From a bacterium SCSIO 12643 (GTDB taxonomy: Bacteria > Bacteroidota > Bacteroidia > Flavobacteriales_G > Salibacteraceae), in NCBI GenBank assembly GCA_024398135.1, contig CP073750.1, positions 1,984,001 through 2,048,000 of the forward strand: 64,000 bases of DNA. The letters run 5' to 3'. Both the position numbers and the translations under genes were made by a program. Each line of letters opens with the position of its first letter. Positions within the stretch are counted from its first letter, which is position 1. The notes below the pieces were generated by a model, which was given only the letters and a program-made list of their open reading frames with translations, had not been told where the DNA came from and did no database searches. Shown in pieces: positions 15,949 to 37,752 of this stretch.

Positions 15949-16860
15949 TTATTTGCTCGTTAAATGTATTTCTTCTACTTGAAGAACCTCACCGGTATCG
16001 GAATTATATAGGAATACAACTACATCCATATTTTCAGGTTTCCAGTTATCATTAATTTTTACCGAAATTTCGTCAGCTGGAGAAATAACTTCTGCAACAT
16101 CACCCATGGACGGGTCTGTGAATATTGTCTTTCCATCACCGCCTCCAGGGAACCCAACTCTTAGAACATGATTGTGCTCATAGTCCTTTACATAAGGATC
16201 GTTCAATCTACTATCCTTTTGAGGAGCTATGATTTTGTTTTCCAGTAAATAACCTACAATCGCAATGTTTCCAGTTACATTTTGCAGACATGTAGCTTTA
16301 TATCTCACGCGTAAAGAACGATCACCAGGTTTGCTATTATAGATGTTTTCTAATTGCAACTCGAATCTAGGAGCCATGTATGTTTGATCCGCAATAAGCT
16401 TATTTACTTCTTCTGACCATTTTTGATAATCCACTTTAACAGCTCCACTTATTTCCGTGCGGTTTAGTAATCCTCCTGGAAATCCTGAGATTTTGTATTT
16501 GATGAGAAGTTTTTCACCGGTTTTCGTTTCAAAATCTGAAGGAAAGGGATGTTCCGGGTCACTCATATCAACTTTGGCAAATGAGCCATTATGTATGGCA
16601 ACAGATATAAAATCTTCTGGGTGATCAGTTTTTATTTGTTTTGCGATATCCGCCCCTTCAGGACAATTTGGGCATTTATGACCTGTGAATTCCTCAAGCA
16701 TAATTCTTCGTTTAACGACTGTAGTGTCATTGTAAACAGTGTCGTTATATTGCTCATCACCCGGGCGAGCTCCGTTATTATTATAAGGTTGGGTAATTAA
16801 ATTGCAACTATAGGTAATGGTAAGGAGTAAAAATGAATATCCAAAAATTCTCTTTTTCAT
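15949..16860 (-). CDS. Omp28-related lipoprotein with thioredoxin-like CPNC motif (copy 1)
   Basis: A 303-aa predicted lipoprotein (lipid-accepting Cys19 in TITYSCNL) of the Omp28 family. Omp28 is an outer-membrane protein first described in Porphyromonas. After an acidic linker the sequence VKRRIMLEEFTGHKCPNCPEGA places a CxxC pair (C63/C66) where thioredoxin-fold proteins carry their redox centre. A beta-sandwich-like C-terminal half follows. It is a tandem paralogue of the next gene upstream (17038-17949). A central block of about 206 bases is almost identical between them while the flanks are clearly diverged. Thiol-redox activity and export to the outer membrane are inferred. Confidence 0.8.
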   Translation of the reverse strand: MKKRIFGYSFLLLTITYSCNLITQPYNNNGARPGDEQYNDTVYNDTTVVKRRIMLEEFTGHKCPNCPEGADIAKQIKTDHPEDFISVAIHNGSFAKVDMSDPEHPFPSDFETKTGEKLLIKYKISGFPGGLLNRTEISGAVKVDYQKWSEEVNKLIADQTYMAPRFELQLENIYNSKPGDRSLRVRYKATCLQNVTGNIAIVGYLLENKIIAPQKDSRLNDPYVKDYEHNHVLRVGFPGGGDGKTIFTDPSMGDVAEVISPADEISVKINDNWKPENMDVVVFLYNSDTGEVLQVEEIHLTSK

Positions 16861-16988
16861 GATCGGTTGATACTGGTTATTAACTACGAATATAACATTC
16901 TATAAATGTGATAATGCATATAATCTACGGAAAAATAATGGTTTAGGTTTTAAGGTGATTTCTAAATGGAAATAAAGTTAAGCTCAAA

Positions 16989-17020
16989 AAAAATCCCGAT
17001 TCATTTGAATCGGGATTTTT
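16989..17020 (-). terminator. Terminator after Omp28 copy 2
   Basis: The same 14-bp stem as at 15900-15931, with loop ATTT in place of TTTT, at the same distance from the gene end. It was evidently duplicated together with the gene. Confidence 0.85.
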
Positions 17021-17037
17021 TCATATTAGCAATAATA

Positions 17038-17949
17038 TTATTGACTTGTAAGAGAGACTTCTTCAGCTTGAAGAATCTCGCCTGTATCAGAATTGTATAA
17101 GAATACAACTACTTCCATATTTTCTGGTTTCCAGCTATCGCTAACCGCCACAGAAATTTCATCTGATGGAGATATGACTTCAACAATATCCCCCATAGAA
17201 GGGTCCGTGAATATTGTTTTACCGTCACCGTCACCTGGGAATCCGATTCTAAGAACATGATTGTGCTCATAGTCCTTTACATAAGGTTCGTTCAATCTAC
17301 TATCCTTTTGTGGAGCTATGATTTTGTTTTCCAGTAAATAACCTACAATCGCAATGTTTCCAGTTACATTTTGAAGACATGTAGCTTTATATCTCACGCG
17401 TAAAGAACGATCACCAGGTTTGCTATTATAGATGTTTTCTAATTGCAACTTGAATCTGGGAGCCATGTAAGTTTGATCAGCAATAAGCTTATTTACTTCT
17501 TCCGACCATTTTTGATAGGCTACTTTGACATTTCCATTAATTTCTGTACGGTTTAACATTCCGCCAGGGAATGCTGCAAATTTGTACTTAATTCTAAGTT
17601 TTTCACCAGTTTCTGTTTCAAAGTCCGAAGGATATGGATGCGTTGGATCGCTCATATCTACTTTAGAAAATGCGCCAGAATTGTGTATTGCAACCGAAAT
17701 GAAATCTTCAGGATGATCTGTTTGTATTTGTTTAGCAATATCAGCTCCTTCAGGACAATTTGGACATTTATGACCCGTAAATTCTTCCAGAATAATTCTT
17801 CTTTTAACAACGGTTGAATCGTTGTAAACAGTATCGTTGTATTGTTCATCACCTGGTCCAGCCCCTCCCTCAGGATATGGATTGGTAACCACATCGCAAC
17901 TTGCAGCTACGATAGATGTTAGTATGATAAATCCAAATAGTTTTTTCAT
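17038..17949 (-). CDS. Omp28-related lipoprotein with thioredoxin-like CPNC motif (copy 2)
   Basis: A 303-aa paralogue of copy 1, with lipid-accepting Cys18 (IVAASCDVV) and the redox-like pair C62/C65 in FTGHKCPNCPEGAD. It starts 11 bases after the stop of the DUF6029-type gene on the same strand, so it is likely the last gene of the operon tlpA-like / DUF6029 / Omp28, closed by the terminator at 16989-17020. The sequence between about residues 165 and 235 is almost the same as copy 1. The N-terminal signal and the C-terminal end differ more. Function is inferred from fold and context only. Confidence 0.8.
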   Translation of the reverse strand: MKKLFGFIILTSIVAASCDVVTNPYPEGGAGPGDEQYNDTVYNDSTVVKRRIILEEFTGHKCPNCPEGADIAKQIQTDHPEDFISVAIHNSGAFSKVDMSDPTHPYPSDFETETGEKLRIKYKFAAFPGGMLNRTEINGNVKVAYQKWSEEVNKLIADQTYMAPRFKLQLENIYNSKPGDRSLRVRYKATCLQNVTGNIAIVGYLLENKIIAPQKDSRLNEPYVKDYEHNHVLRIGFPGDGDGKTIFTDPSMGDIVEVISPSDEISVAVSDSWKPENMEVVVFLYNSDTGEILQAEEVSLTSQ

Positions 17950-17960
17950 AACGTTTATGT

Positions 17961-19625
17961 TTAGAACGTGCTGGATAAAGTAAGTTTAACACCATTAGAT
18001 GCTGGTACTACACGACAAATTCCTCCTACACAGAATAAACCTTCTCTTTGTCGGCCATAGCTTAACATGATCTTATTGGCCTTTTGTGTATATCCTACAG
18101 CTGCAGTGAAATAGTGTATTCTTTTTTCAGCAGATTTATTTCCGTAATTGTATTGATCCAATAATGAGAACGACCAATGAGGAGAAACAGTATATTCCGC
18201 AACAAATGCGGCCCAATCGCCATCATGTTGATCTGTGAATAATGTTTGAGCTTCTACTCTTAATGTATTCTTTCTATCAAATTTAAATTTCCCCTCGGCA
18301 ATAAAAACGTTTGCCAAAATATCTGATTCCCCTGGTTTCCCTTGAAGAATATCTATGTTGTAAAACAAGTTCTGATAAGTGAATTTTAATTGAAACAACT
18401 TTGAGAATTTATGAACGATTTTCATATTGAAATCATGCCATAATTTTGTGTCTCCCGGTTTGAATAAATCTGCAGAATAACCTAAACGAGTAGTCTCCAT
18501 ATCATTCAGGTTTGTGGTATCTACATCATTTGCAAAAGAGAAATTAACGAATAAAGTCGTTCCATATTTTCCTCCTAACAGAGATTTACGCTTAAACTTG
18601 TATACTGCATCCACCTGAAACGCCATTTCATTTTGAAGTTGAGTCGCATATGGATAAAGCGTTGCCATCAACAAATAACTGTGCGGCTTTGTTAAAGACG
18701 GAATAAAGTTAATGTATTCTTCCGTAAATTGACTGGAGTTGTCTCTGTCACTACGATAAGACATGTTAATCAATGTATGCGCAGTAACATTAATTCCGAA
18801 ACCTCTTTTGGAGTAACCTAAACCTGCTTCTAACGATTGACCATTTCTAAAGATATATCGGTTATCAGCAGAAGGGTCATTGTATTTATAAGCGTATTCA
18901 CTGTATACATACATCCCTTTTCTGGAAACTTTAAATCTACCATCAAGAATCATTACGTTTTCAGGTAATACCAAATCCGGACTATTATCAGGTTGGTATT
19001 TACTTACTACACTACCACCAAACTGAATCTTGGTAGGGTTGTCTTTTAAATTATCCAGTAAATCGTTTAGCTGAACATTTAAATCAGCTCCACGAACGAT
19101 ACCCTCACTTTGAGTAAAATAATTCCTTTGAGTACCGATTAACATTTTAATTCCAACTCCCTTGTTGTTGTACTTTACTCTAAAACCATCAAAAGAGTTG
19201 TCGACACCTAATGTCGGTTCAAAATAACTTCTTAAAGGAAATCCATTACCGAATTGTTCATAGAAGTTTCCCGCAGTGAAATCAAAATTACCCAATTTAT
19301 AACCAGCATATCTATAAGGAATTCCATTTCCAATATATTCTGGACTATAACCTAATAAGGCATTTTGATAACTTTCATATCTAATTCCAGCACGGAAGTT
19401 TCCTTTGGTATAATTTAGGTTAAGAAAACCATTAAACAATACTTGTTCAGGAACATCAGGTGCACCAATAAGGGTATCATCACGATAGTATTGAGCCCCC
19501 AAATCGAAGTTTCCATGAATTTGACCTAAATCGGTACCAGCTGGTATTGGAGAATTTTGTGCGTTAACCTGAAACGCAAATACAGTTACAAATAAAAATG
19601 AAACTATTATTTGAATCTTACGCAT
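17961..19625 (-). CDS. Predicted outer-membrane beta-barrel protein (DUF6029-like)
   Basis: A 554-aa exported protein with a signal peptide (cleavage after FQVNAQ). Most of its length is alternating-polarity strands of the type NFRAGIRYESYQNALLGY and KLFQLKFTYQNLFYNI, ending in a barrel-like strand with terminal Phe (GVKLTLSSTF), as in outer-membrane barrels. I recall proteins of this kind as DUF6029 in Bacteroidota. It lies between a TlpA-like thioredoxin gene (24 bases) and Omp28 copy 2 (11 bases), so it may be the barrel partner of these periplasmic or surface thiol proteins. No enzyme motif is visible. Confidence 0.7.
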   Translation of the reverse strand: MRKIQIIVSFLFVTVFAFQVNAQNSPIPAGTDLGQIHGNFDLGAQYYRDDTLIGAPDVPEQVLFNGFLNLNYTKGNFRAGIRYESYQNALLGYSPEYIGNGIPYRYAGYKLGNFDFTAGNFYEQFGNGFPLRSYFEPTLGVDNSFDGFRVKYNNKGVGIKMLIGTQRNYFTQSEGIVRGADLNVQLNDLLDNLKDNPTKIQFGGSVVSKYQPDNSPDLVLPENVMILDGRFKVSRKGMYVYSEYAYKYNDPSADNRYIFRNGQSLEAGLGYSKRGFGINVTAHTLINMSYRSDRDNSSQFTEEYINFIPSLTKPHSYLLMATLYPYATQLQNEMAFQVDAVYKFKRKSLLGGKYGTTLFVNFSFANDVDTTNLNDMETTRLGYSADLFKPGDTKLWHDFNMKIVHKFSKLFQLKFTYQNLFYNIDILQGKPGESDILANVFIAEGKFKFDRKNTLRVEAQTLFTDQHDGDWAAFVAEYTVSPHWSFSLLDQYNYGNKSAEKRIHYFTAAVGYTQKANKIMLSYGRQREGLFCVGGICRVVPASNGVKLTLSSTF

Positions 19626-19649
19626 AATGATATGTTCAGAAATGTAAAA

Positions 19650-20147
19650 TTAAATTTCTTCTCCCGCGTTCAGCTTGTGAACAAGCTCTAGAAGCTCTTC
19701 CTCATCTCCAGGGTTATAGCCATTGTGTTGCCACACAATCTCACCTTTACCGTTTAAAAGGAATGCATGAGGTACATTGTTCACATTCATTGCACGTCTG
19801 AATTCCGAATTTACATCCAACAATGTAATAAAAGGCCAATCTTGTCCATATACATATGGTTGAACACTGTTTACAGAACGAGAATTATCGATAGAAACGA
19901 TATAGATTTTCACACCAGTTTCTTCCCAGTCTGGCCACTCATCTGCAATTGCATTTAGTTCAGCTTTACATGGTGCACACCAGGTTGCCCAGAAGCTAAT
20001 AATAATAGGCTTTCCATCGTTTTTAATGTTCAATGTATTGAATGTTTCAAAATCAATATTTTGAATTTGAACTTCAGGCAATTTTGCTTGTGAAAAAGCA
20101 CTGATAGATAACGCAATAGCGACAATAAAAGTGGATAAATATTTCAT
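19650..20147 (-). CDS. TlpA-like periplasmic thioredoxin
   Basis: A 165-aa exported thioredoxin-fold protein. The start at 20147 gives a signal peptide (MKYLSTFIVAIALSISAFSQ); the frame upstream of it has no family support. The active site is WCAPC with C57/C60 in ISFWATWCAPCKAEL. The cis-Pro region NNVPHAFLLNGKGEIV fits the TlpA/ResA/thiol-disulfide reductase family. A minus-strand TATGTTTG box lies at 20178-20185, shortly upstream. It is the first gene of the operon with the DUF6029-like barrel and Omp28 copy 2, suggesting it keeps cysteines of its exported neighbours in the right redox state. Confidence 0.88.
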   Translation of the reverse strand: MKYLSTFIVAIALSISAFSQAKLPEVQIQNIDFETFNTLNIKNDGKPIIISFWATWCAPCKAELNAIADEWPDWEETGVKIYIVSIDNSRSVNSVQPYVYGQDWPFITLLDVNSEFRRAMNVNNVPHAFLLNGKGEIVWQHNGYNPGDEEELLELVHKLNAGEEI

Positions 20148-20258
20148 GTTTTTTTGTTTGAGGCTGTAATTATAAACCAAACATATTAATAGAACAAAAA
20201 AAAGTGCTTTTAATATAGATGATGTCTTTTGTTTAACATAAAATTTAGAATGAAGATT

Positions 20259-20288
20259 TTGATTAAATTTGGAGCAGGCTCATTTTTG
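20259..20288 (+). promoter_or_regulatory. Promoter for the di-haem peroxidase gene
   Basis: TTG at 20259-20261, a 19-base spacer, then CATTTTTG at 20281-20288. This differs by one base from the TAnnTTTG consensus. It lies 21 bases before the ATG at 20310. Confidence 0.5.
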
Positions 20289-20309
20289 TGTAAGTATAAG
20301 TAAATTAGA

Positions 20310-21491
20310 ATGTTGATGAAATGTGATTTGAAACTTCGGAACCGTAAATGGATTTTTTTAGTATTTATTTTGGGGTTCTCCGCCTGTAAAAAGGATGTTG
20401 AACCAACTAATACGCTGACGCAATATCAAAAGGATAATCAGATGTTAAGCGAATACTTGAACTTACCTTCAAGTCCATATAATTATCAGGGGATTACATT
20501 GCCTGGATATCTTGGGAATACGAATATTTTAATTCATGATAATACACCTGCGGATAACCCGGTGACTGATGAGGGTGCAACATTGGGTAGAGTTTTATTT
20601 TACGATAAAAAATTGTCCAGGAATGGAACAATATCATGTGCCAGCTGTCATGTGCAGGAGTTTGGTTTTAGTGATACAGCTACATTGTCAAAAGGATTTG
20701 AGGGAGGACTAACAGGACGCCATTCCATGGGTTTGAGTAATTCCAGATTTAGAACAAACGGACGTTTTTTCTGGGATGAACGAGCTGAAACTTTAGAAGA
20801 TCAGGTATTGATGCCAATTCAGGATGCTGTTGAAATGGGTATGACTTTAACCGATTTGGTGAATGTAGTGGATCAACAGGAATATTATAAAATATTGTTT
20901 AAGCGTGCATTTGGAGATGATGAGGTTTCATCTGATCGTATTTCGAAGGCGCTTGCACAGTTTATCAGATCCATGGTTTCATTTAATTCTAAATATGACC
21001 AAGGGAGAGCCCATCATGAAGTGAATGAACCATTTGATAATTTTACTGTGCAGGAAAATTGGGGGAAATCACTTTTTAATAGCATCGATAAAGGACAATG
21101 TGGTAGTTGCCATTCTACAGATGCGATGATCACGGTTGTTTCTCGTAATAATGGATTAACCAGAGAACCAGATGATTTTGGGTTGGAAAAAACAACAGGA
21201 AATCCTTTGGATAGAGGTAAGTTTAAGGCTCCTTCTTTGAGAAATATAGCAGTTAGGCCTCCATATATGCACAATGGAGATTATAAGAGTTTAACGGAAG
21301 TTATTCAGGGATATAGTACAGGAATTAATTGGTCTCCAACATTAGATGGTCATTTAAAAATGCCGGGTGGTCAAACAGCTATTCGCTATAACTTGACTCA
21401 AGAAGAGATAGAAGCGTTAGAGGCTTTTTTAAATACGTTGACCGATACCGAATTCTTAACGAATAAGATTTATAGCGATCCATTCAAATAA
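20310..21491 (+). CDS. Di-haem cytochrome c peroxidase / MauG family lipoprotein
   Basis: A periplasmic-side c-type cytochrome of the CcpA/MauG family, which reduces hydrogen peroxide or performs related haem oxidations. It has 393 aa with a lipoprotein signal (Cys26 in LGFSACKKD). Two haem-binding CxxCH motifs are present: C110-C113-H114 (SCASCH) and C264-C267-H268 (CGSCH). The family phrases RFFWDERAETLEDQ and FKAPSLRNIAVRPPYMHNG are also clear. It starts at the ATG at 20310 or 20316. It diverges from the tlpA-like gene across 162 bases and has its own promoter and terminator. Whether it is a true peroxidase or an oxidase of another substrate cannot be told from sequence. Confidence 0.88.
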   Translation: MLMKCDLKLRNRKWIFLVFILGFSACKKDVEPTNTLTQYQKDNQMLSEYLNLPSSPYNYQGITLPGYLGNTNILIHDNTPADNPVTDEGATLGRVLFYDKKLSRNGTISCASCHVQEFGFSDTATLSKGFEGGLTGRHSMGLSNSRFRTNGRFFWDERAETLEDQVLMPIQDAVEMGMTLTDLVNVVDQQEYYKILFKRAFGDDEVSSDRISKALAQFIRSMVSFNSKYDQGRAHHEVNEPFDNFTVQENWGKSLFNSIDKGQCGSCHSTDAMITVVSRNNGLTREPDDFGLEKTTGNPLDRGKFKAPSLRNIAVRPPYMHNGDYKSLTEVIQGYSTGINWSPTLDGHLKMPGGQTAIRYNLTQEEIEALEAFLNTLTDTEFLTNKIYSDPFK

Positions 21492-21498
21492 AATAAAA

Positions 21499-21529
21499 AA
21501 AGCCGTTTACCTTTCTGGTAAACGGCTTT
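21499..21529. terminator. Bidirectional terminator
   Basis: A perfect 13-bp stem AAAGCCGTTTACC/GGTAAACGGCTTT with loop TTTCT, between the convergent peroxidase gene and the T9SS cargo gene ending at 21551. Confidence 0.88.
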
Positions 21530-21550
21530 GTATCATCTAAGTGAGATATC

Positions 21551-23611
21551 TTATTTCTGGATCACTAATTGTGAAGTAGAAACCTGACCATCAATAGTCA
21601 CTTCCACCATGTAAACACCAGCGTTTAAGCTTGCAGTATTTAACTCGATGTTGTTTTGACCACCGTTCACTTTTACATTGTTCATGTAGATTACAGTTTT
21701 ACCTACTAAGTCTAAAACTTTAATTGACGCGTTAGCCGCATCAGCAGAAGAAATAGCTAAAGTAGTATTGCTTACTGCAGGATTTGGATAAATATTGATG
21801 TTGTTATTTGCAGCATCAACATTGTTTACAGAAGTAATTCCACTCGTTGCATTCGCAGCATTGAAAACTGTTTTGTCAGAAGCTTGTAACCAAACTACAA
21901 CACCTAAATCAGTGAATTCCTCAACAGAGTGCTCAGTTGCATCATTAATCAAGTCAGTTGCATTGTTAGGTAATCTGAAGTTACCCTGGAAAGTGTAATC
22001 TTTACAGATTTTTTGGTTCATTCCAGCAGTAATGTTTACTGTTTCACCATCTGCATCTGGAACCATTTTTTTCACAACATCAAAGAACTCAGTCTCACCG
22101 TTTGTTCCAACGTTTTGAACTGTTTTGTGCTCTTTAATAGCAATTTGAAGTGAAGCGTTACCTAAATCTTTTAATGCAGTAATAGTTGCGCAAGTTCTCA
22201 CTTTTTGATCTGCAACAGTTACGTTATATTCAGCATCAATGTTAACGAAAGCTGGTACTTCAAGAGCAGCAGTGTGCTCAGCCATAGTGAAGGCATTTGA
22301 GTTACCATCCCATCCACCATCGATTTCCATTCCAGGAACAGAACTAATGTTGTAATATCCTCTTCTAGTGTTTCCATCAGCAGCGTTGTATGGATCACCA
22401 TCACCTGGCCAGCTCATTTGATACTTGATAGAAGCAAATTGAGAATCTGGAAGTGTAGCGATAATACCTTCGAAGTTTGCATTACCAGGAACACATGGAG
22501 GACATGTAGAACTTGTGAAAGTTTCGTAAAGAACTACTCTTGGGTATGCATTAGAATACGTTGTAGTGTTTTTGTCTGTTTTATCATTTGATGGATCAGA
22601 ATCAGGATTTCCGTTAATAGCAGAAGCCCAGAACTCAACGTTGAAAGTAGCTTCAGTAGTTGGATCCCACGCAGTTGGATGCGTTACAGTAGCTGAAGTA
22701 CCAGAAGCAATACTTAAACCAGAAACTGTAGCTACAACTGGAGTACCACCATCAACACTATAAGATAATTCTAAGTCAGTGATCGTTTGAGCACCTAAGT
22801 TAGTGATAGTAGCTTCAACACTTGTTCCACCTTGACCTAATTTTAAGTAATTAGGAGTCATTAAATCTGACATAGTAGCTTCGTAATCTGGTTGAACACC
22901 AGGAATGAATGCGTAGTAAGAGTTGTCCGCAGGACCAACATCAGAACCACCAGAAGTTGCACTGTTTACTGAAGCTAAAGCTGGAGACCCAGGAACACTC
23001 ATTGCGTTACTAGCGTCAAATTGAATACCAGCAGTTAAAGCTACACCAGCTCCTGCATTCACATAGTTACGTGCGTCTACGATATAAATTTTGTTAGTTG
23101 TTTCTTCTAAAGCGATTGACCAGTAAACCCAGCCACCGCCTTGAGGCCATGATGCTGAAGCCCAAGTGATCCAGTATTGTCTGTTTGGTGCAGTACCGTG
23201 AGTCTTAACGATAACACCATCGTTACCACCACTTAAGTTTAATCCCCAAATACAAATTGAGTTATCTGGAATCATTGCTGTAGGAAGAGCTACATTATTA
23301 CCAGGTCCCACTCCAGTTGAAGCAGTAAATGAAACAACACCATTTGGTGCAACATATACAGAATTGTAAGAGTTTCCATTAAAGGTAAATGAAAATGGTA
23401 GAGTTTGCGCTGATGACCAATCTGTATCACCAGAGTTTAATACCTGAGTATATCCTGTTGAATTAGCTAACATATAAGCAGCTGTTTGATCTTCATCGGT
23501 ATTTAAACCACCAGGATTTTGACCAGCATTAATAAATGGTAATTGATAATACTGAGCAGAAAGAGCTCCCGAAATCAATACCACAGATAATAAAGTAAAG
23601 ATTTTTTTCAT
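21551..23611 (-). CDS. T9SS type A cargo protein with Omp28-like half (long version)
   Basis: A 686-aa exported protein with a signal peptide (MKKIFTLLSVVLISGALSAQ). The N-terminal domain (about residues 21-240) looks like a beta-sandwich (PFSFTFNGNSYNSVYVAPNG, WVYWSIALEE). A CARDB-like domain of the form EATITNLGAQTITDLELSYS follows (about 245-350). From residue 354 onward the sequence is Omp28-like, with C370/C373 in SSTCPPCVPG, and ends with a T9SS type A sorting domain (NINIYPNPAVSNTTLAISS). The last 333 residues are about 97% identical to the neighbouring 630-aa protein by eye. Probable surface protein; function unknown. Confidence 0.85.
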   Translation of the reverse strand: MKKIFTLLSVVLISGALSAQYYQLPFINAGQNPGGLNTDEDQTAAYMLANSTGYTQVLNSGDTDWSSAQTLPFSFTFNGNSYNSVYVAPNGVVSFTASTGVGPGNNVALPTAMIPDNSICIWGLNLSGGNDGVIVKTHGTAPNRQYWITWASASWPQGGGWVYWSIALEETTNKIYIVDARNYVNAGAGVALTAGIQFDASNAMSVPGSPALASVNSATSGGSDVGPADNSYYAFIPGVQPDYEATMSDLMTPNYLKLGQGGTSVEATITNLGAQTITDLELSYSVDGGTPVVATVSGLSIASGTSATVTHPTAWDPTTEATFNVEFWASAINGNPDSDPSNDKTDKNTTTYSNAYPRVVLYETFTSSTCPPCVPGNANFEGIIATLPDSQFASIKYQMSWPGDGDPYNAADGNTRRGYYNISSVPGMEIDGGWDGNSNAFTMAEHTAALEVPAFVNIDAEYNVTVADQKVRTCATITALKDLGNASLQIAIKEHKTVQNVGTNGETEFFDVVKKMVPDADGETVNITAGMNQKICKDYTFQGNFRLPNNATDLINDATEHSVEEFTDLGVVVWLQASDKTVFNAANATSGITSVNNVDAANNNINIYPNPAVSNTTLAISSADAANASIKVLDLVGKTVIYMNNVKVNGGQNNIELNTASLNAGVYMVEVTIDGQVSTSQLVIQK

Positions 23612-23662
23612 GCGAAAAAATTTAATTTGATGTGAATAATTGAAATTTATAAGCCGTAAATC

Positions 23663-23682
23663 TACAATAATAATTTATTGTA
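23663..23682. promoter_or_regulatory. Palindrome upstream of the 686-aa cargo gene
   Basis: TACAATAA/TTATTGTA, two perfect 8-base arms with a 4-base spacer (TAAT). It lies 52 bases upstream of the start codon at 23611 and could be an operator. No regulator is known to bind it. Confidence 0.35.
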
Positions 23683-23776
23683 CAAAATTTATTTTTCGCA
23701 AAGAGTGATGGAAGTCATATGTTAAGTGTGAGTGGTAAATGGGTTGATAATTAAAAGGTTAATGTAGTAAAAGAAA

Positions 23777-23806
23777 AAGCCACTTACCCGCTAGGGTAAA
23801 TGGCTT
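23777..23806 (-). terminator. Terminator after the 630-aa cargo gene
   Basis: Stem AAGCCACTTACCC/GGGTAAATGGCTT, with one position that pairs as G-U only in the minus-strand RNA, followed on that strand by a T-rich tract. It fits termination of the gene ending at 23830. Confidence 0.75.
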
Positions 23807-23829
23807 AATGTTTTTGTCAAGGTAATTTT

Positions 23830-25722
23830 TTATTTCTGAATCACCAATTGTGAAGTAGAAACCTGACCATCAATAGTCACTTCCACCATGTAAACACCAG
23901 CGTTTAAGCTTGCAGTATTTAACTCGATGTTGTTTTGACCACCGTTCACTTTTACATTGTTCATGTAGATTACAGTTTTACCTACTAAGTCTAAAACTTT
24001 AATTGACGCGTTAGCCGCATCAGCAGAAGAAATAGCTAAAGTAGTATTGCTTACTGCAGGATTTGGATAAATATTGATGTTGTTATTTGCAGCATCAACA
24101 TTGTTTACAGAAGTAATTCCACTCGTTGCATTTGCAGCATTGAAAACTGTTTTATCAGAAGCTTGTAACCAAACTACAACACCTAAATCAGTGAATTCCT
24201 CAACAGAGTGCTCAGTTGCATCATTAATTAAATCTTGTGCACTGTTTGGTAATCTGAAGTTACCCTGGAAAGTATAATCTTTACAGATTTTTTGGTTCAT
24301 TCCAGCAGTAATGTTTACTGTTTCACCATCTGCATCTGGAACCATTTTTTTCACAACATCAAAGAACTCAGTTTCACCGTTTGTTCCAACGTTTTGAACT
24401 GTTTTATGCTCTTTAATAGCAATTTGAAGTGAAGCGTTACCTAAATCTTTTAATGCAGTAATAGTTGCACAAGTTCTTACAGTTTGATCGTCCACAGTTA
24501 CGTTATATTCAGCATCAATGTTAACGAATGCAGGAACTTCAAGTGCAGCATCGTGAAGTGCAGCAGTGAAAGAGTTAGAGTTACCATCCCATCCACCATC
24601 GATTTCCATTCCAGGAACAGAACTAATGTTGTAATATCCTCTTCTAGTGTTTCCATCAGCAGCGTTGTATGGATCACCGTTACCTGGCCAGCTCATTTGA
24701 TACTTGATAGAAGCAAATTGAGAATCTGGAAGTGTAGCGATAATACCTTCGAAGTTTGCATTACCAGGAACACATGGAGGACATGTAGAACTTGTGAAAG
24801 TTTCGTAAAGAACTACTCTTGGGTATGCATTAGTGTAAACATTAATGTCATGAGTTTGAACATTGTCTGAAATGTCCGCATCAGCCACACCATTTACTGC
24901 AGTAACTTTTACTTCAATAGTGTAATCACCTTCTGCAGATGGAGTCCAAGGAGTAGTATGCGTGAAATCGTAATCTGTTAGAGGAGCAACGTTTAAACCA
25001 GTTAAAGTCGCAGCAACAGGAGAACCACCATTTACGGTATACTCTACATCCATAGAAGTAATAGCGGCACCACCGTTGTTTCTAATAGATCCTTTAATAT
25101 CTACAGCACCGTTACTTAATTTAGAATAGTTAGGAATATCCAAAGAAGATAAAGTAACATCTTCGTCAGCAGGAACGTAAACAGAAATGTCGTCAATACC
25201 CATTCCATAAACCCATCCACCATCATCGTTATAACGGAAACCTACCATAATGTTTTGACCAGCATAGCTACTTAAATCAACAATTACGTCAGTCCATGCA
25301 CCAGCACCTGATAATGTACCTAAAACAGAATATGATGAACCACCGTTAGTAGATACTTCAACGGTAGCAACTTCTTGAGCTCCCTGGTAGGCAGCAGCAA
25401 AATAGTATTGAGAATATTTCATGAAAACAGCGCCAGATTGATTCGTCAGGTCAATAGCCGCGGTATATAAAAAGTCATCACTTTTATCACAGTTACAATC
25501 ATCATCATTGGTAGCCGCGAATTGTGTGTTGTTTCCAGTTAATGGGAAATATTGAGAACCTAATGTGTTAGCAGTTCCAACGTTCCATCCACCATCAGTA
25601 GCATTTGTGGTTACCCCCCATCCGGCAGGCATAGATCCTCCCTCAAAATCTTCACTAAAGATTTGAGCGGATAAGTTGCTCGCAAGAGCCAAGGCTCCAG
25701 CAAAAAGTAAAGTTTTTTTCAT
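23830..25722 (-). CDS. T9SS type A cargo protein with MAM-like domain and Omp28-like half (short version)
   Basis: A 630-aa exported protein with a signal peptide ending SNLSAQ. Residues 21-185 resemble the choice-of-anchor J / MAM-like beta-sandwich (IFSEDFEGGSMPAGW near the start, GMGIDDISVYV at its end), with a small CNC pair at 76/78. Then comes a CARDB-like domain (about 190-290). From residue 298 the sequence is almost the same as the 686-aa neighbour, including C314/C317 (STCPPCVPG) and the T9SS sorting domain. Only about nine residue differences are visible over 333. A secreted surface protein, probably made by domain exchange with its neighbour. Confidence 0.85.
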   Translation of the reverse strand: MKKTLLFAGALALASNLSAQIFSEDFEGGSMPAGWGVTTNATDGGWNVGTANTLGSQYFPLTGNNTQFAATNDDDCNCDKSDDFLYTAAIDLTNQSGAVFMKYSQYYFAAAYQGAQEVATVEVSTNGGSSYSVLGTLSGAGAWTDVIVDLSSYAGQNIMVGFRYNDDGGWVYGMGIDDISVYVPADEDVTLSSLDIPNYSKLSNGAVDIKGSIRNNGGAAITSMDVEYTVNGGSPVAATLTGLNVAPLTDYDFTHTTPWTPSAEGDYTIEVKVTAVNGVADADISDNVQTHDINVYTNAYPRVVLYETFTSSTCPPCVPGNANFEGIIATLPDSQFASIKYQMSWPGNGDPYNAADGNTRRGYYNISSVPGMEIDGGWDGNSNSFTAALHDAALEVPAFVNIDAEYNVTVDDQTVRTCATITALKDLGNASLQIAIKEHKTVQNVGTNGETEFFDVVKKMVPDADGETVNITAGMNQKICKDYTFQGNFRLPNSAQDLINDATEHSVEEFTDLGVVVWLQASDKTVFNAANATSGITSVNNVDAANNNINIYPNPAVSNTTLAISSADAANASIKVLDLVGKTVIYMNNVKVNGGQNNIELNTASLNAGVYMVEVTIDGQVSTSQLVIQK

Positions 25723-30420: not shown

Positions 30421-33400
30421 TTGGAATTGGGGAATAATTACAGGATAAAATTTTTGCTCATTGTTGTCTTCGCATTATTGTGCGATAACGCAGTTGTGTA
30501 TGCTGGGGAAGCATCTGAGTGGAATTATTATGCGCAAAACCCAATAGATTCGGGCGATAGCGATTCTATTAATCTGGTATATCCATACGAAGATAATAGT
30601 GTAAGTCCTTTTAATTCCGGAGAGTCGCCAATCAACCTGGGAGATCCTTCCAATATCAATCAGGAAGTTCAATATGATCCGGTAACCGGTAATTATTATA
30701 TCGTTTCAAAGATCGGTGATACCCTGGATTATCGACCTATTAACTATATGACGTTTGAGGAATATCTGGATTACGATTTGGATCAGGCTTTATCTAAGTA
30801 TTGGAAGGATAAAAATGCTACGGAGAGTGAATTAAGTAAAGACGATGATAAGAGTAAAGATCTTATACCGTCTTTGAATGTTGATAGTAAGGGGTTCGAT
30901 AACATTTTTGGAGGAAATACGATTGATATTCGCCCGAGTGGATCCGCTCAGATTAAGTTTGGTTTAAAAAATTCAAAGACTCAGAATCCTGCTTTATCAG
31001 AAAGACAAAGAAGTATTACCACGTTTGACTTTGATCAACAAATTCAGGTGAATCTGATTGGAAATATCGGGGATAAAATGAAAATGTCCATTAACTATAA
31101 TACTGAAGCGACATTTGACTTTGAGAATCAGGTCAAGGTTGATTTCACGGGTTATGATGACGATATTATTCAAAAGATCGAGGCGGGTAACGTAAGCTTG
31201 CCACTATCAGGGTCTTTAATTACAGGGTCCCAAAGTTTATTTGGGTTGAAGACCAAGTTGAAATTCGGAAGACTGGAGGTGACATCGGTCTTTTCGCAAC
31301 AAAGAGGTAAGAAGGAAGAAATTGAAGTAAAGGGAGGAGCTCAGGTTAAAGAATACGAGTTAAAGGCAGATGAATATGATGAAAACAGACACTACTTTAT
31401 TTCGCATTTTTTCAGGGATAACTACGAGCAAGCTATGTCAAGTCCACCTTTTGTGAGTTCTCCAATAAATGTAACTCGAATTGAAGTTTGGGTGACCAAT
31501 AACAATAACACGACCCAAAACACGCGAAACCTAATTGCATTCCAGGATTTAGGGGAAGCCGATCCGGATAAAGTGTTTAATCAAAATGGAACCGGACCTT
31601 TACAAGTCACTTCAACGAATGGGTTCCCGAATAATCAGGCAAATACCCTATATAATGCGGTAAATATTCCTGAAGTGAAGGGATATGATCAATCAACACC
31701 AGCGCTTGCTGCTTTAGGATACATTGCACAAGAAGATTATCAAAAAGTTGGTTTAGCAAGGTTGTTGACCGAGAATGAATATACGTTTAATCCGCAGCTT
31801 GGGGTGATTTCATTGAATATGGAAATGCAACCAAATCAGGTGTTATCCGTAGCGTTTCAATATACTTATCAAAGTCAGGTGTATCAGGTTGGGGAATTTT
31901 CAACAGACGTAGTAAACAGTCAGGCCATATTTACGAAAATGTTGAAGAGTTCGAAGATTAACACCAATGCTCCGATGTGGGACTTGATGATGAAAAACGT
32001 GTATTCTATTGGTGCATATCAGGTACAGAAAGAGAACTTTAAGTTTGATATCTGGTATTTAGATAGAAGAACAGGAGTGCCAACGAACTATATTCCTTCC
32101 GGTCCTGCGAATGTAAGTGGTCTTCCTTTGATTCAGGTGATGAATTTGGATAAGATGGATAGAAATATGAACCCTGGGCCTGATGGGGTTTTTGACTTTT
32201 TGTCCGGGCCATCAAATCTGCCATATATCAATCCTAAAAATGGAAAGGTGTTCTTCCCGGTATTGGAGCCGTTTGGTAGTCATATTCATAATATTTCAGG
32301 AGGCGATGCAGAGTTTATTGATAAGTATGCCTTTGATTCTTTGTATACGAATACAAAGCCTGATGCGCGGGCGAAATTTCCAAATAAGAATAGATTCTAT
32401 TTTAAAGGAAAGTACGAGTCTTCCGTGAGCAACGAAATTTCTGTTGGTGCAATGCAAATTCCGCAAGGGTCGGTTAAGGTAACTGCCGGTGGACGTGAAT
32501 TGGTTGAGGGGTCGGATTATCAGGTAGATTATAATCTGGGTAGAGTGAAGATTTTAAATCAAGGATTATTGGAGTCAGGTATTCCGATTAAGATTTCATT
32601 AGAGAGTAATTCATTATTCAATATTCAAACCAAGACATTATTAGCTTCCAGATTTGATTATAAAATCTCTAAAGATTTTGTAGTTGGTGGTACGATTATG
32701 AATTTGTCTGAGCGTCCTTTGACGCAAAAAACAAGCTATGGCGATGAGCCCATATCGAATACGGTTTGGGGAGTGGACGGAACATATCGATCAGAATCTC
32801 AGTTTTTAACACGAATGGTAGATAATTTGCCGGGGATTGACACGAAAGAAAAATCGAACTTTCAGGTAACCGGTGAGTTCGCACAATTTATTCCTGGACA
32901 CTCAAAGGCCATTGGAAAATCTGGAACCTCATATATTGATGACTTTGAAGGAAGTCAATCTACCATTGATTTGAGATCAAGAACATCCTGGTCATTAGCT
33001 TCTATTCCTCAGAATCAGCCCGCGTTATTTCCTGAGGCAAGCTTGGTTAACAATACAGCACTTGGTTTTAATAGAGCTTTGTTTTCATGGTATACTATTG
33101 ATCCATTATTTTTTAGGAATGACTCCCGGACACCTGATCATATTAAAAATGATCCGGCTATGCAGAGTAATCACTTCATGAGAGAGATTACCGTGACTGA
33201 GGTTTTCGAAAATCAACAGGTGAGTAGTGTGCAAAATCAAAATATTCCAACATTGGATATGGCATTTTATCCAAGTGAAAAAGGTCAGAATAACTATGAT
33301 TTTGATGGTAGAGACTCTATTGGTAATGTGTATAGTGCAGGTATTAATCCGCAGGATGGAACATTATTAGAACCAGAAACCAGATGGGGAGGGATTCAAA

Positions 33401-36400
33401 GAAAGATTGACCAGCAAAACTTTGAGGCGTTAAATATTGAGTATATCCAGGTATGGGTAATGGACCCGTTTAACGAAGATTATGAGGGAGGAAATGACGA
33501 TGGTACATTATATATCAACCTGGGATCAGTTTCTGAGGATGTGCAAAGAGATGGTCAAAACTTTTTTGAGAATGGTTTGGTCTCTCCGCCTACGGATATC
33601 GCAACCGAACCTTTTACCAGTGCATGGGGTCGATACACTCCTGGAAATCAAATTGTAGATGGGTTTGATAATGATCCGGATGCGCGTCAATATCAGGATG
33701 TTGGTTTAGATGGGATGCGAGATGTGGAAGAAGGTGAATTCTTTAGTGAATATGCAAGTAATATTGCTGGTATTCCAAACCTTGAAAATGATATTTCACA
33801 GGATAACTTCGTGTATTTCAGAGCTGATGCTTATGATAATCAACAGGCAGATATTTTAACCCGATACAAAAAGTTTAATGGTTATGAAGGGAACTCTCCA
33901 TTATCGACAAGTGCAGGAGCAGCAGCGGTGGGGTCAACCCGACCAAACCAGGAAGATATTAATAAGGATAAGAATATTGACGAAACGGAATCATACTGGC
34001 AATATAAAGTAAAAGTAAGCCGTGCGGATTTTAACAGAAATAACATTGGAAATAACTATATCACAGATGTTCGAACTGCGGTGATTCCTACAAAGGATGG
34101 TAGAACCAGAGAAATTGATTGGTATCAGTTAAAAATTCCGATTCGCCAGGGGGAGCCAATAGGAGGGATTAGAGATTTTAGATCCATCCGTTTCATGAGG
34201 GTGTTTATGAGAGGGTTTGAAAATCAGGCGATCATGCGTTTTGCCAGATTGGAATTGGTAAGAGGGGAATGGAGAAAGTTTGAAGGAACATTGGAAGATC
34301 CGGGTGATTATATTTTGGGAGATGACTTTACAAACTTTGACGTGTCTGCAGTAAATATTGAGGTGAATTCCTCAAAAGAGCCTGTCAACTATGTGTTGCC
34401 TCCATTTATTCAACGGGAGATTAATGTCGGTTCAACCAACCTGAATCAATTGAATGAGCAATCTTTAGCATTAAACATTTGTGAGTTGCCAGATGGACAA
34501 GGTAGAGCGGTGTACCGTACGTTTGATTTAGATGTTCTTTCCTATAATACGATTAAGATGTTTGTCCATGCCGAATCGTATGAAAATGAATCTCCGGTGA
34601 ATGATGGAGATTTAGTAGCTTTTATGCGGGTAGGAACAGATTTTGAAAATAACTATTATGAGTATGAAATTCCACTAAAGATTACGTTACCAGGACAGTA
34701 TAATGGAGATGATGATCAGCAAAGATTGTTTGTTTGGCCTGAGGCGAATAATATGGAAGTCTCACTGAATGACTTCAAAGACATCAAAATCCAGCGAAAT
34801 AAAGAGGCTATTGTATCTGGAGGTGGTGCTGCGAATTTTGATACGCCATATTCGGTTAAAAAAGGAAAAGCAAAAGTATCAGTTGTAGGTAATCCAAGTT
34901 TGAATGGTGTTAAAACAATTATGTTGGGTATTCGAAACCCAAGAAAAGAAGTAGGTGACGAAGATGATGATGGAGAAGGAAAATGTGCTGAAATCTGGTT
35001 TAATGAGTTGAGGTTAACGGATTTTGATGATCAAAGTGGTTGGGCATCTATCGTAACAGCAAATGCAAAACTTGCGGATTTTGCTACAGTTTCTGTTTCA
35101 GGTAGTATGAGTACACCTGGATGGGGAAGTATCGATAAAAAGATTAGTGAGAGACAAAGAGAAACCAGACAGGATTTAGATGTGCAGGCAAATGTGGAAT
35201 TAGGTAAGTTCTTTGGTAAAAAATCCGGGGTGAAGATTCCAACTTATGTAGGTTATACGGTAGGTATTGTGAAGCCACAGTTTGCGCCTTTAGCTCCCGA
35301 TATTGAATTTGAAAAATATGTAAAAGAAGCTTTCCCTGCCGGGAGAGAACAAGATTCGGTGCGTAACGTGCAGCAAAAAGTCGTTACCCGAAAGAGTTTG
35401 AATTTTACGAATGTTAGAAAAGAAAGAACCGATACGAAGAAGAAAAAGAAGGTATATGATATTTCAAATTTTGCCTTGAATTACTCTTACAACTCAACCG
35501 AGATGCATGATTTCGAAACGGAATTTGATAATATGAAATCATATCGAGGCGGAATTTCTTATAACTATTCTTCTGCGCCCAAAAACATTAAGCCTTTTAC
35601 AAAGAGTAAATTCTTAAATAGCACAAAGTGGTTGGCTTTAGTGAAAGACATTAACTTTTATCCATATCCTAAATCATTTAGTTTTTCTACAGATGTAAAT
35701 CGTCAATATCAGGAGTCCAGAACCAGAAATAATAATCCTGAGTTATTAAATACGATACCGGTTTATGTAAATAAAACATTCGATTGGAATAGAAACTATG
35801 CGGTACGATGGGATATAACCAGAGCAATTAAATTGGACTTTACCGCGCGAAATAAATCTTTGATTGAAGAGTCTGCGGGTAGACCAAGTGATTCGCTGGA
35901 TATTTGGAAAGAAACAGTTAGAAATAGTATTCGAGATTTTGGAACTAATCTGAATTATAACCATGCATTTAATGGAACCTGGGCGATCCCGTTGAATAAG
36001 ATTCCGGCATTGGATTGGACGAATAGTACATTCAAATACGGGTCTACATACAGTTGGGTGAGAGCACCATTTATATCTGACAATTCAGAGACTGGGGGGT
36101 TAGGGAATACGATCCAAAATACGCAGACGATGCAGATAAATGGAACTTTGAATTTTGTAAATCTGTACAACAAATCAAAGTATCTCAAAAAGGTGAACTC
36201 TAAGAGACCAACCGCAAAAAAGAAAAATGATAAGAAGAAAACGGAGGATAAAAAGGACAATAACGATACAACAAAAACCAAGACTAAAAAGCCTAAAAAA
36301 GATGGGCCGCCAAGTTTTGTAGATGGTATTTCCAGAGTGTTGATGATGGTGCGAAAAGGGAATGCAAGTTATAGTGTAACTAACGGAATCATGTTGCCGG

Positions 36401-37752
36401 GATATAATCAGCAAACAGAAGTTATAGGTATGAACAATAATTTTAGTGCACCTGGACTCGGTTTTGTATTTGGACAACAAACAGGATTTGGTGATAGTGA
36501 TGACTTCCTGGATTATGCCCAACGGAATGATTGGCTCGTCCGGAACCCCGATTTCAATAATCAATATAGAGAGACCAGAGGGGAAAAGTTAAATTTAAAA
36601 TTGACAGTTGAGCCGGTTCGAGATTTTAGGGTAGAATTAAATACCAGTTGGAATGATGCTAAAAGTTATACCACATATAACAGATATTATGATACGCTGA
36701 CTTTACCAGATGGGTCTCAGGTATTTGATGATTTCAATAGAGATAGCCCGCTAGAACAAGGTAATTTTAGCACATCTTTTAATATGATAAGAACAGCATT
36801 TTCAAAAGATGGTGATGATTATACCAGTGCTCCTTTTGAACAGTTTGCTTCCAATAGAGCGATAATCTCTGAGAGATTGGGTAGAGAGTCACAACAAAGA
36901 GGGTATTCAAATGGCCCTTCTGATAGTGGGTATTATGATGGGTATGGTCCAAACCATCCTGATGTATTGATACCGGCATTTCTCGCAGGGTACAGTGGTC
37001 AGAATGCGAGTTCAATAAGCACCAATGTATTCTCGAAAATGTATATCCCAAATATGCGTTTGACATACACAGGTCTGGGAAAACTGCCATCTTTAAAGAA
37101 GCATGTTAGAAATGTGAGTATTTCATCAGGATATAAATCATCGTACATTATTGGTGGATATACTTCCAATATCTTGTTTGATGATAAAGGTGATGGTTTT
37201 ACCGATGTGAGAGATACGAGTTCATTGTATAACAACTTTGTATCAGAATATACCTACAATAGTGTTACGATTAGGGAAGCATTTAGTCCATTAATCAATG
37301 TAGATGTGACATTGAAAAACTCGGTGCAAGTACGATTTGAGATTAAGAAAGACCGTACAATTAATTTAAGTACGCGAAGTTTACAGGTAATGGAGGTTCG
37401 TGGACAAGAGTTTACGTTAGGTTTAGGATATACGTTCAAGCAACTAAGAGCACCTTTCCAGCCTAAGACTAAAAGAAAAGCAATTAAGAGTGACTTTAAA
37501 GTCAGAGCGGATTTCTCATTGAGAAAAAACCTAAGTATTACCAGAGAGTTAACAACAAATATTAACAGGAATAATCCAACGAATGGTCAAAATACATTAT
37601 CGGTTAAATTAACAGGTGATTATAAGTTAAACAGAAAGTTAACTTTAAGACTATTCTTCGATTATAGATCTAATACTCCTGTTATTTCATTATCGTATCC
37701 AAACTCTACAACCAACGGAGGATTTAGTATTAGGTTTAACCTTAACGGATAG
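30421..37752 (+). CDS. sprA: T9SS outer-membrane translocon / gliding protein SprA (Sov)
   Basis: SprA is the giant outer-membrane beta-barrel that forms the Type IX protein-conducting channel, known as Sov in Porphyromonas. This copy has 2443 aa, the expected size. It begins with a signal peptide (IKFLLIVVFALLCDNAVVYAG), then long beta-rich stretches. Typical SprA phrases include FDFDQQIQVNLIGNIGDKM, GRLEVTSVFSQQRGK, a DDFEGSQSTIDLRSRTSW region, and a C-terminal strand GGFSIRFNLNG. No ATG is available before about residue 109 and a stop lies in frame at 30412, so translation must use TTG at 30421 or 30427 (or a rarer codon). A Lys-rich low-complexity loop sits near 36190-36300. It would export the CTD proteins of this window. 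Confidence 0.93.
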   Translation: MELGNNYRIKFLLIVVFALLCDNAVVYAGEASEWNYYAQNPIDSGDSDSINLVYPYEDNSVSPFNSGESPINLGDPSNINQEVQYDPVTGNYYIVSKIGDTLDYRPINYMTFEEYLDYDLDQALSKYWKDKNATESELSKDDDKSKDLIPSLNVDSKGFDNIFGGNTIDIRPSGSAQIKFGLKNSKTQNPALSERQRSITTFDFDQQIQVNLIGNIGDKMKMSINYNTEATFDFENQVKVDFTGYDDDIIQKIEAGNVSLPLSGSLITGSQSLFGLKTKLKFGRLEVTSVFSQQRGKKEEIEVKGGAQVKEYELKADEYDENRHYFISHFFRDNYEQAMSSPPFVSSPINVTRIEVWVTNNNNTTQNTRNLIAFQDLGEADPDKVFNQNGTGPLQVTSTNGFPNNQANTLYNAVNIPEVKGYDQSTPALAALGYIAQEDYQKVGLARLLTENEYTFNPQLGVISLNMEMQPNQVLSVAFQYTYQSQVYQVGEFSTDVVNSQAIFTKMLKSSKINTNAPMWDLMMKNVYSIGAYQVQKENFKFDIWYLDRRTGVPTNYIPSGPANVSGLPLIQVMNLDKMDRNMNPGPDGVFDFLSGPSNLPYINPKNGKVFFPVLEPFGSHIHNISGGDAEFIDKYAFDSLYTNTKPDARAKFPNKNRFYFKGKYESSVSNEISVGAMQIPQGSVKVTAGGRELVEGSDYQVDYNLGRVKILNQGLLESGIPIKISLESNSLFNIQTKTLLASRFDYKISKDFVVGGTIMNLSERPLTQKTSYGDEPISNTVWGVDGTYRSESQFLTRMVDNLPGIDTKEKSNFQVTGEFAQFIPGHSKAIGKSGTSYIDDFEGSQSTIDLRSRTSWSLASIPQNQPALFPEASLVNNTALGFNRALFSWYTIDPLFFRNDSRTPDHIKNDPAMQSNHFMREITVTEVFENQQVSSVQNQNIPTLDMAFYPSEKGQNNYDFDGRDSIGNVYSAGINPQDGTLLEPETRWGGIQRKIDQQNFEALNIEYIQVWVMDPFNEDYEGGNDDGTLYINLGSVSEDVQRDGQNFFENGLVSPPTDIATEPFTSAWGRYTPGNQIVDGFDNDPDARQYQDVGLDGMRDVEEGEFFSEYASNIAGIPNLENDISQDNFVYFRADAYDNQQADILTRYKKFNGYEGNSPLSTSAGAAAVGSTRPNQEDINKDKNIDETESYWQYKVKVSRADFNRNNIGNNYITDVRTAVIPTKDGRTREIDWYQLKIPIRQGEPIGGIRDFRSIRFMRVFMRGFENQAIMRFARLELVRGEWRKFEGTLEDPGDYILGDDFTNFDVSAVNIEVNSSKEPVNYVLPPFIQREINVGSTNLNQLNEQSLALNICELPDGQGRAVYRTFDLDVLSYNTIKMFVHAESYENESPVNDGDLVAFMRVGTDFENNYYEYEIPLKITLPGQYNGDDDQQRLFVWPEANNMEVSLNDFKDIKIQRNKEAIVSGGGAANFDTPYSVKKGKAKVSVVGNPSLNGVKTIMLGIRNPRKEVGDEDDDGEGKCAEIWFNELRLTDFDDQSGWASIVTANAKLADFATVSVSGSMSTPGWGSIDKKISERQRETRQDLDVQANVELGKFFGKKSGVKIPTYVGYTVGIVKPQFAPLAPDIEFEKYVKEAFPAGREQDSVRNVQQKVVTRKSLNFTNVRKERTDTKKKKKVYDISNFALNYSYNSTEMHDFETEFDNMKSYRGGISYNYSSAPKNIKPFTKSKFLNSTKWLALVKDINFYPYPKSFSFSTDVNRQYQESRTRNNNPELLNTIPVYVNKTFDWNRNYAVRWDITRAIKLDFTARNKSLIEESAGRPSDSLDIWKETVRNSIRDFGTNLNYNHAFNGTWAIPLNKIPALDWTNSTFKYGSTYSWVRAPFISDNSETGGLGNTIQNTQTMQINGTLNFVNLYNKSKYLKKVNSKRPTAKKKNDKKKTEDKKDNNDTTKTKTKKPKKDGPPSFVDGISRVLMMVRKGNASYSVTNGIMLPGYNQQTEVIGMNNNFSAPGLGFVFGQQTGFGDSDDFLDYAQRNDWLVRNPDFNNQYRETRGEKLNLKLTVEPVRDFRVELNTSWNDAKSYTTYNRYYDTLTLPDGSQVFDDFNRDSPLEQGNFSTSFNMIRTAFSKDGDDYTSAPFEQFASNRAIISERLGRESQQRGYSNGPSDSGYYDGYGPNHPDVLIPAFLAGYSGQNASSISTNVFSKMYIPNMRLTYTGLGKLPSLKKHVRNVSISSGYKSSYIIGGYTSNILFDDKGDGFTDVRDTSSLYNNFVSEYTYNSVTIREAFSPLINVDVTLKNSVQVRFEIKKDRTINLSTRSLQVMEVRGQEFTLGLGYTFKQLRAPFQPKTKRKAIKSDFKVRADFSLRKNLSITRELTTNINRNNPTNGQNTLSVKLTGDYKLNRKLTLRLFFDYRSNTPVISLSYPNSTTNGGFSIRFNLNG

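What the first reader, a model, noticed from the sequence alone, without database searches (positions are those of the whole stretch)
21551..25722. Two adjacent T9SS cargo proteins share a 333-residue C-terminal half but have unrelated N-terminal domains
Nucleotides 21551-22554 and 23830-24833 align at a constant offset of 2279, with about nine amino-acid differences over 333 residues. Immediately upstream, at the codons for NAYPRV, similarity stops abruptly and the N-terminal domains differ (beta-sandwich type against MAM-like). This looks like modular swapping of the displayed domain on a fixed Omp28 plus sorting-signal chassis. Several of the differences cluster at two short sites (the DAALEVP and DQTVRT regions).
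Basis: partly seen in the sequence, partly recalled or inferred. Interest (0 to 1): 0.6.

Follow-up and report, generated by a model that had tools for sequence, protein, structure and literature searches.

The report
Twin surface thioredoxins with homogenised tails
Two neighbouring genes for cell-surface redox proteins carry different front ends but an almost identical back half, and comparison with relatives shows that the back half is repeatedly copied from one gene to the other inside each genome, which is a clear case of ordinary gene conversion rather than a domain-switching device.

Summary
The last 333 codons of two tandem genes differ at 40 of 1004 nucleotides (9 residues), and near-identity stops at the NAYPRV codons. 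The heads differ, but a ~105-residue CARDB-like linker before the break is still homologous (37% aa), so only the first ~190-240 residues are unrelated.

The shared half is an HBP35/Omp28-like thioredoxin module (CxxC in 67/68 relatives, cis-Pro in 68/68; predicted fold matches P. gingivalis HBP35, Z 23.2) plus a T9SS tail.

Five genomes in three genera hold the same tandem pair, always J then A. In trees, heads group by gene type while the C-halves group by genome: in 5 of 6 genomes A and J are sisters, and forcing the J halves together is rejected. In window gene A, head and linker group with the same-genus orthologue but the C-half groups with neighbour J. Fourfold sites differ at 1/129 outside two old patches and 9/18 inside.

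This is concerted evolution by gene conversion confined to the 3' half of old paralogues, not recent head swapping. Head replacement occurs only on long time scales. No evidence for phase variation was found. It is a new member of a known kind.

The parts
21551..23611 (-). Gene A: signal peptide, type-A beta-rich head (res. 1-~240), CARDB-like linker (~250-352), HBP35/Omp28-like thioredoxin module (353-~600), T9SS type A sorting tail (607-686)
   Evidence: ORF; tail PF18962 E 1.4e-13 and weak CARDB; TIGR04183; head model pLDDT 90, all beta
23830..25722 (-). Gene J: signal peptide, choice-of-anchor-J head (22-181), CARDB linker (200-290), same thioredoxin module (297-544), T9SS tail (551-629)
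   Evidence: ORF; CARDB E 3.4e-7; choice_anch_J E 4.9e-13 and TIGR04183
21551..22554 (-). Homogenised 3' half of A (recipient or donor of gene conversion)
   Evidence: 40 of 1004 nt differ from 23830-24833; groups with J of the same genome, not with A of the same genus
23830..24833 (-). Homogenised 3' half of J
   Evidence: as above
22190..22300 (-). Unconverted patch 1 (the DAALEVP and DQTVRT sites); counterpart 24469-24579 in J
   Evidence: 8 of 16 fourfold sites differ here against 1 of 129 in the rest
21950..21970 (-). Unconverted patch 2; counterpart 24229-24249 in J
   Evidence: 7 nt differences in 19 nt
22555..22869 (-). CARDB-like linker of A just upstream of the break; homologous to the J linker (24834-25148) but not homogenised
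   Evidence: 37% aa identity to J, 76% to the same-genus orthologue; groups with G002_A at 100/98
21499..21529 (-). Terminator-like hairpin after A
   Evidence: consensus match only
23777..23806 (-). Terminator-like hairpin between J and A, so the two genes are probably separate transcription units
   Evidence: consensus match only

Best explanation
A and J are old tandem paralogues, both secreted by T9SS to the cell surface. Each displays a thioredoxin-fold thiol-disulphide module (HBP35/Omp28-like, active-site CPPC) behind a head that probably decides what the protein binds. Homologous recombination between the tandem copies repeatedly copies the 3' half (thioredoxin module plus sorting tail) from one gene to the other. 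Copying stops at the linker, where the two genes have drifted too far apart to recombine. So the working half evolves in concert inside each genome while the heads stay distinct. Shown here: tandem pair, shared history of C-halves within genomes, separate history of heads (and of the linker in the window genus), mosaic tracts, conserved CxxC and cis-Pro, predicted fold. Inferred: that recombination is RecA-dependent gene conversion, that selection keeps the chassis common, that the module is redox-active at the surface, and that the heads bind ligands.
For: Mosaic at silent sites: fourfold sites differ 1/129 outside the patches, 8/16 in patch 1 and 1/2 in patch 2; longest identical run 287 nt, reached in 0 of 20,000 shuffles. 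Two histories in one gene: head A groups with the same-genus orthologue G002_A (100/100) and so does the linker (100/98), but the C-half of G000_A groups with G000_J (100/99); both alternatives, G000_A+G002_A and G000_J+G002_A, are rejected (p-AU 0.009 and 0.008). Recurrence: within-genome C identity is 96% (G000), 74% (G005), 86%, 87%, 83% (G010, G032, G031) and 75% (G015), against 54% (G000 vs G005), 41-44% (G000 or G005 vs G010) and 45-47% (G000 vs G015) between genera. In the C-trees A and J are sisters in 5 of 6 genomes. Holding the J halves as one clade is rejected (p 5.5e-71 for all, 1.9e-6 within genus g9), although J heads of g9 form a clade (99/100). Same order J then A in all five tandem pairs; G000 and G005 also share neighbours (DUF6029, TlpA-like, Omp28 lipoprotein, SIR2, malic enzyme). 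Module: CxxC in 67 of 68 homologues, cis-Pro in 68 of 68; AlphaFold pLDDT 94.7; HBP35 5y1a Z 23.2, 219 residues, 2.5 A. SprA of the T9SS is encoded in this same window.
Against: Direction of copying is unresolved: at patch residues 440, 447 and 470 the same-genus A protein resembles J, at 404 it resembles A. In G031 the two C-halves are adjacent but not strictly sisters (88/86). In G015 the genes lie about 180 kb apart on one contig, yet the C-halves are 75% alike, so proximity is not always needed. The linker tree does not separate A from J cleanly outside the window genus: in G005 the two linkers are sisters (99/97), so there the copied stretch may have been longer. Recent duplication of a chassis followed by head capture cannot be excluded separately for G005 and G015, where the J-head subtype or location differs. 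No population data exist here, so the rate of conversion is unknown.
Confidence: 0.86

Rival explanations
1. Recent modular swap: one gene was duplicated and a new head was fused to the copy, so the shared half is simply young.
For: Heads do vary on this chassis across species, and G005 and the window genome carry different J-head subtypes at the same slot.
Against: J heads of the G000 subtype on this chassis occur in other genera, and A heads are orthologous across genera. A young duplicate would not leave patches with half of the silent sites changed, nor a weakly similar linker on both genes.
Confidence: 0.08
2. A phase- or antigenic-variation locus in which heads are exchanged on a fixed chassis within a population.
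For: Surface proteins with long direct repeats; a second array with three head types on one chassis exists in the same genome.
Against: No silent cassettes: only two copies of the thioredoxin chassis in the genome. Homologous exchange between the direct repeats would delete or duplicate a head, not switch it. Both genes have complete ORFs and their own terminator-like hairpins.
Confidence: 0.03
3. Strong purifying selection on the thioredoxin half keeps the two copies alike without recombination.
For: The module is well conserved in general (CxxC in 67/68).
Against: Silent fourfold sites are identical in 128 of 129 positions outside the patches, and the same half is only 65-67% identical in protein between A or J and the same-genus orthologue.
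Confidence: 0.01

Closest known systems
HBP35 of Porphyromonas gingivalis (PDB 5Y1A)
   Same: T9SS-secreted protein with a thioredoxin module followed by a beta domain and sorting tail; best structural match to the shared half, Z 23.2 over 219 residues. Recombinant HBP35 has thioredoxin activity that needs the two active-site cysteines (PMC2907840).
   Different: HBP35 has no head domain before the thioredoxin module; the sequence match is weak (profile search E 0.84). Hemin binding was not tested here for the window proteins.
Omp28 family (PF11551, NF033782; PDB 2R2C)
   Same: Part of the predicted fold matches P. gingivalis Omp28 (Z 9.2); a G005 relative hits PF11551 at 28.5 bits, below the cut-off; true Omp28 lipoproteins sit nearby at 17038-17949 and 15949-16860.
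   Different: A and J themselves give no PF11551 or NF033782 hit, have no lipoprotein look, and carry T9SS tails.
RgpA/Kgp/HagA gingipain-adhesin genes of P. gingivalis
   Same: T9SS cargo genes with different N-terminal parts and identical repeat sequences among their C-terminal adhesin modules, with combinatorial modularity and recombination (PMC5266723); Cleaved_Adhesin/choice-of-anchor-J modules occur in both groups.
   Different: There the shared modules are adhesins and the heads are proteases; here the shared half is a thioredoxin and the heads are the adhesin-like parts, and homogenisation is traced across species.
RgpA/RgpB paralogues
   Same: One part 97% identical, another part only 76% identical between two paralogues of one genome (abstract of PMC10319874).
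   Different: Their diverged parts (propeptides) are still homologous; the heads here are not.

Membership tests
T9SS type A cargo | C-terminal type A sorting domain | tested here: met
   TIGR04183 50.5 and 50.9 bits against cut-off 23
T9SS type A cargo | T9SS translocon in the genome | tested here: met
   SprA_N 498 bits, ORF at window 30748-37752
T9SS type A cargo | Export and tail cleavage observed | not testable with these tools
   needs proteomics
HBP35-like / thioredoxin superfamily | CxxC active site and cis-Pro | tested here: met
   CxxC 67/68, Pro426 68/68
HBP35-like / thioredoxin superfamily | Thioredoxin fold plus beta domain as in 5Y1A | tested here: met
   pLDDT 94.7; Z 23.2, 219 aligned
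HBP35-like / thioredoxin superfamily | Thiol-disulphide activity | not testable with these tools
   insulin reduction assay needed
Omp28 (PF11551) | Match above the curated cut-off | tested here: not met
   no hit for A or J; relative G005_J 28.5 bits, below 34.9
Choice-of-anchor J head (NF038128) | Match above curated cut-off in J | tested here: met
   49.6 bits against 30
Gene conversion (concerted evolution) | Paralogues closer within a genome than orthologues, over part of the gene | tested here: met
Gene conversion (concerted evolution) | Mosaic tracts with sharp changes in silent divergence | tested here: met
   1/129 against 9/18 fourfold sites
Phase/antigenic variation locus | Silent cassettes or invertible repeats | tested here: not met
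   only two chassis copies in the genome; in the region only imperfect inverted matches of 28-40 nt, 72-75% complementary
Phase/antigenic variation locus | Mixed arrangements in a population | not testable with these tools
   needs long reads

The most novel reading that the evidence does not exclude
Concerted evolution of the C-terminal chassis combined with exchange and divergence of heads is a general way in which T9SS cargo families diversify: the tail and working module are kept uniform by gene conversion in tandem arrays while heads are swapped. A second tandem array in the same genome (G000:C1:1084000-1102000, five genes, three head types on one chassis) shows the same pattern.
Probability: 0.35. 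Interest if true: 0.6.

Novelty: new member of a known kind. Interest (0 to 1): 0.4.

Why it matters
It gives a clean, phylogenetically controlled case in which one gene has two histories split at a domain border, repeated in at least two further genera. It warns that orthology of T9SS cargo assigned from C-terminal halves is misleading, and it points out a family of headed, surface-exposed thioredoxins related to HBP35 that had no curated family model for the thioredoxin half in Pfam or NCBIfam as searched here.

Tried and rejected
Recent duplication with head capture was rejected for the window pair because linker and head of A are orthologous to the same-genus gene while the C-half is not. 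Purifying selection alone was rejected by silent sites. Phase variation found no support. The direction of conversion was tried with the patch residues and remains open. The A head gave no solved relative by sequence and no clear one by structure: Foldseek had no match under E 0.001, and VIA gave best Z 5.3, in the range of chance; its binding target is unknown. Literature searches for gene conversion in T9SS cargo returned only the gingipain paper; searches for T9SS-linked thioredoxins led to HBP35 only after the fold match.
Full report
OBSERVATION. The two ORFs exist as described: A, 21551-23611 (-, 686 aa) and J, 23830-25722 (-, 630 aa). Their 3' halves align without gaps at offset 2279: 40 differences in 1004 nt, 9 residues in 333. 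Near-identity begins and ends sharply: just before the codons for NAYPRV (22554/22555) and at the stop codon. That holds for the first ~240 and ~190 residues, but the ~105-residue CARDB-like linker just before the break is homologous in the two genes (37% aa; CARDB hits).

MOSAIC. The differences are clumped: 24 of 40 lie within 111 nt (never above 15 in 20,000 shuffles), and one identical run is 287 nt (not reached in 20,000 shuffles). At fourfold-degenerate sites only 1 of 129 differ outside the patches, but 8 of 16 in patch 1 (22190-22298) and 1 of 2 in patch 2 (21950-21968). So most of the half has been made identical recently, and the patches keep old divergence. They are remnants, not hot spots.

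RELATIVES. Relatives were found in whole genomes and in GTDB contigs. The same tandem pair, always J then A in the direction of transcription, occurs in five genomes of three genera: the window genome, G005, G010, G031 and G032. G000 and G005 share the flanking genes. The three g9 genomes share a different neighbourhood (a 565-residue FtcD-like gene upstream). G015 has A and J about 180 kb apart on one contig. G002, of the window's genus, has A but in the J slot a different T9SS protein with a ResA/TlpA-like thioredoxin domain. G001, also of the genus, has Omp28-like and TlpA-like T9SS proteins at its best-matching locus.

TWO HISTORIES. Within-genome identity of the C-modules is 96% in the window, 74% in G005, 83-87% in genus g9 and 75% in G015, while between genera it is 41-54%. 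A tree of 68 C-modules places A and J of one genome together as sisters in five of six genomes. A careful tree of 18 gives the same, and the AU test rejects J halves as one clade (p 5.5e-71; within g9 p 1.9e-6). In contrast the heads follow gene type: A heads of G000 and G002 are sisters at 100/100, and J heads of g9 form a clade at 99/100. In g9 the neighbouring FtcD-like gene gives ((G031,G032),G010), which the A heads fit, while the C-half tree of A puts G010 with G032 (holding G031+G032 together p 0.027). The sharpest case is window gene A: head and linker go with G002_A (linker 100/98), its C-half goes with J next door (100/99), and both alternatives are rejected at p 0.009 and 0.008. This is the signature of gene conversion limited to the 3' half. 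Direction is not resolved. In G005 the linkers of A and J are sisters too, so the upstream limit may differ between lineages.

WHAT THE PROTEINS ARE. Both have type A T9SS sorting tails, and the T9SS translocon gene sprA lies in the same window at 30748-37752. The shared module has CxxC in 67 of 68 relatives (CGPC, CPPC or CAPC) and a cis-Pro in all 68; one relative has lost both cysteines together. Two extra cysteines (474, 536) are present together in six proteins and absent together in the others, suggesting an added disulphide (inference). The predicted structure (pLDDT 94.7) is a thioredoxin fold plus beta sandwich, closest to HBP35 of P. gingivalis (Z 23.2, 219 residues, 2.5 A), then Agrobacterium 2axo (17.6) and Omp28 (9.2). 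HBP35 is a T9SS protein with thioredoxin activity dependent on its two cysteines (PMC2907840; T9SS-dependent secretion is the title of PMC3120885). The likely role is thiol-disulphide exchange at the cell surface; this is inference. The J head is choice-of-anchor J. The A head is an all-beta domain (pLDDT 90) without a clear solved relative.

HEAD VARIATION. On this chassis I found 31 A-type heads, 14 J-type in two subtypes, a further choice-of-anchor-J group, several unassigned types, and about 15 proteins with no head. The window and G005 carry different J subtypes in the same slot.

COMPARISON. Modular recombination among T9SS cargo genes is known for gingipains and HagA (PMC5266723), and RgpA/RgpB are 97% identical in one domain and 76% in another (abstract of PMC10319874). 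The window pair is a new member of that kind: paralogues partly homogenised by recombination. What is new is the tracing of the process across species with heads as controls, and the headed HBP35-like family.

SECOND CASE. In the same genome five tandem T9SS genes at G000:C1:1084000-1102000 carry three head types on one ~750-residue chassis with mosaic identity; their chassis is 76-81% identical to each other and at most about 52% to any relative searched. This suggests a general pattern, but I did not run the tree tests on it.

Noticed in passing
L169 (G000:C1:1084000-1102000), outside the window: Five tandem T9SS-tail proteins (~1115-1130 aa) with three unrelated head types (T1/T3; T2/T4 MAM-like; T5) on a shared beta-helix/PKD chassis with mosaic identity; a second case of different heads on a homogenised chassis.
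   Followed up: partly
15949-16860 and 17038-17949, - strand: Tandem pair of Omp28 lipoprotein genes with CPNC motif, about 80% identical in DNA over long stretches.
   Followed up: no
15949-25722: A run of exported CxxC proteins: two Omp28 lipoproteins (CPNC), a TlpA-like protein (CAPC, 19650-20180) and A and J (CPPC), around a DUF6029 protein whose C-terminus holds CVGGIC (also in G005, L110); possibly one redox pathway reaching the surface.
   Followed up: no
20310-21491, + strand: A gene for a protein with CxxCH haem motifs (cytochrome-peroxidase-like) stands between the TlpA-like gene and A in the window, also beside A in G002, but not at that place in G005.
   Followed up: no
L165 (G015:C265): A relative of A in which both active-site cysteines are replaced (TPPA), the only one of 68; likely a redox-dead copy.
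   Followed up: no
L120 6291-8435: Second A-headed gene in G024, in tandem with an A gene and a headless one, whose thioredoxin half has nearly lost similarity (40 bits).
   Followed up: no
L111 3540-5210; L137 5267-6931 and 8428-10437: In the window's own genus, T9SS proteins with ResA/TlpA-like or Omp28-like thioredoxin domains at the N-terminus; in G002 one occupies the J slot.
   Followed up: partly
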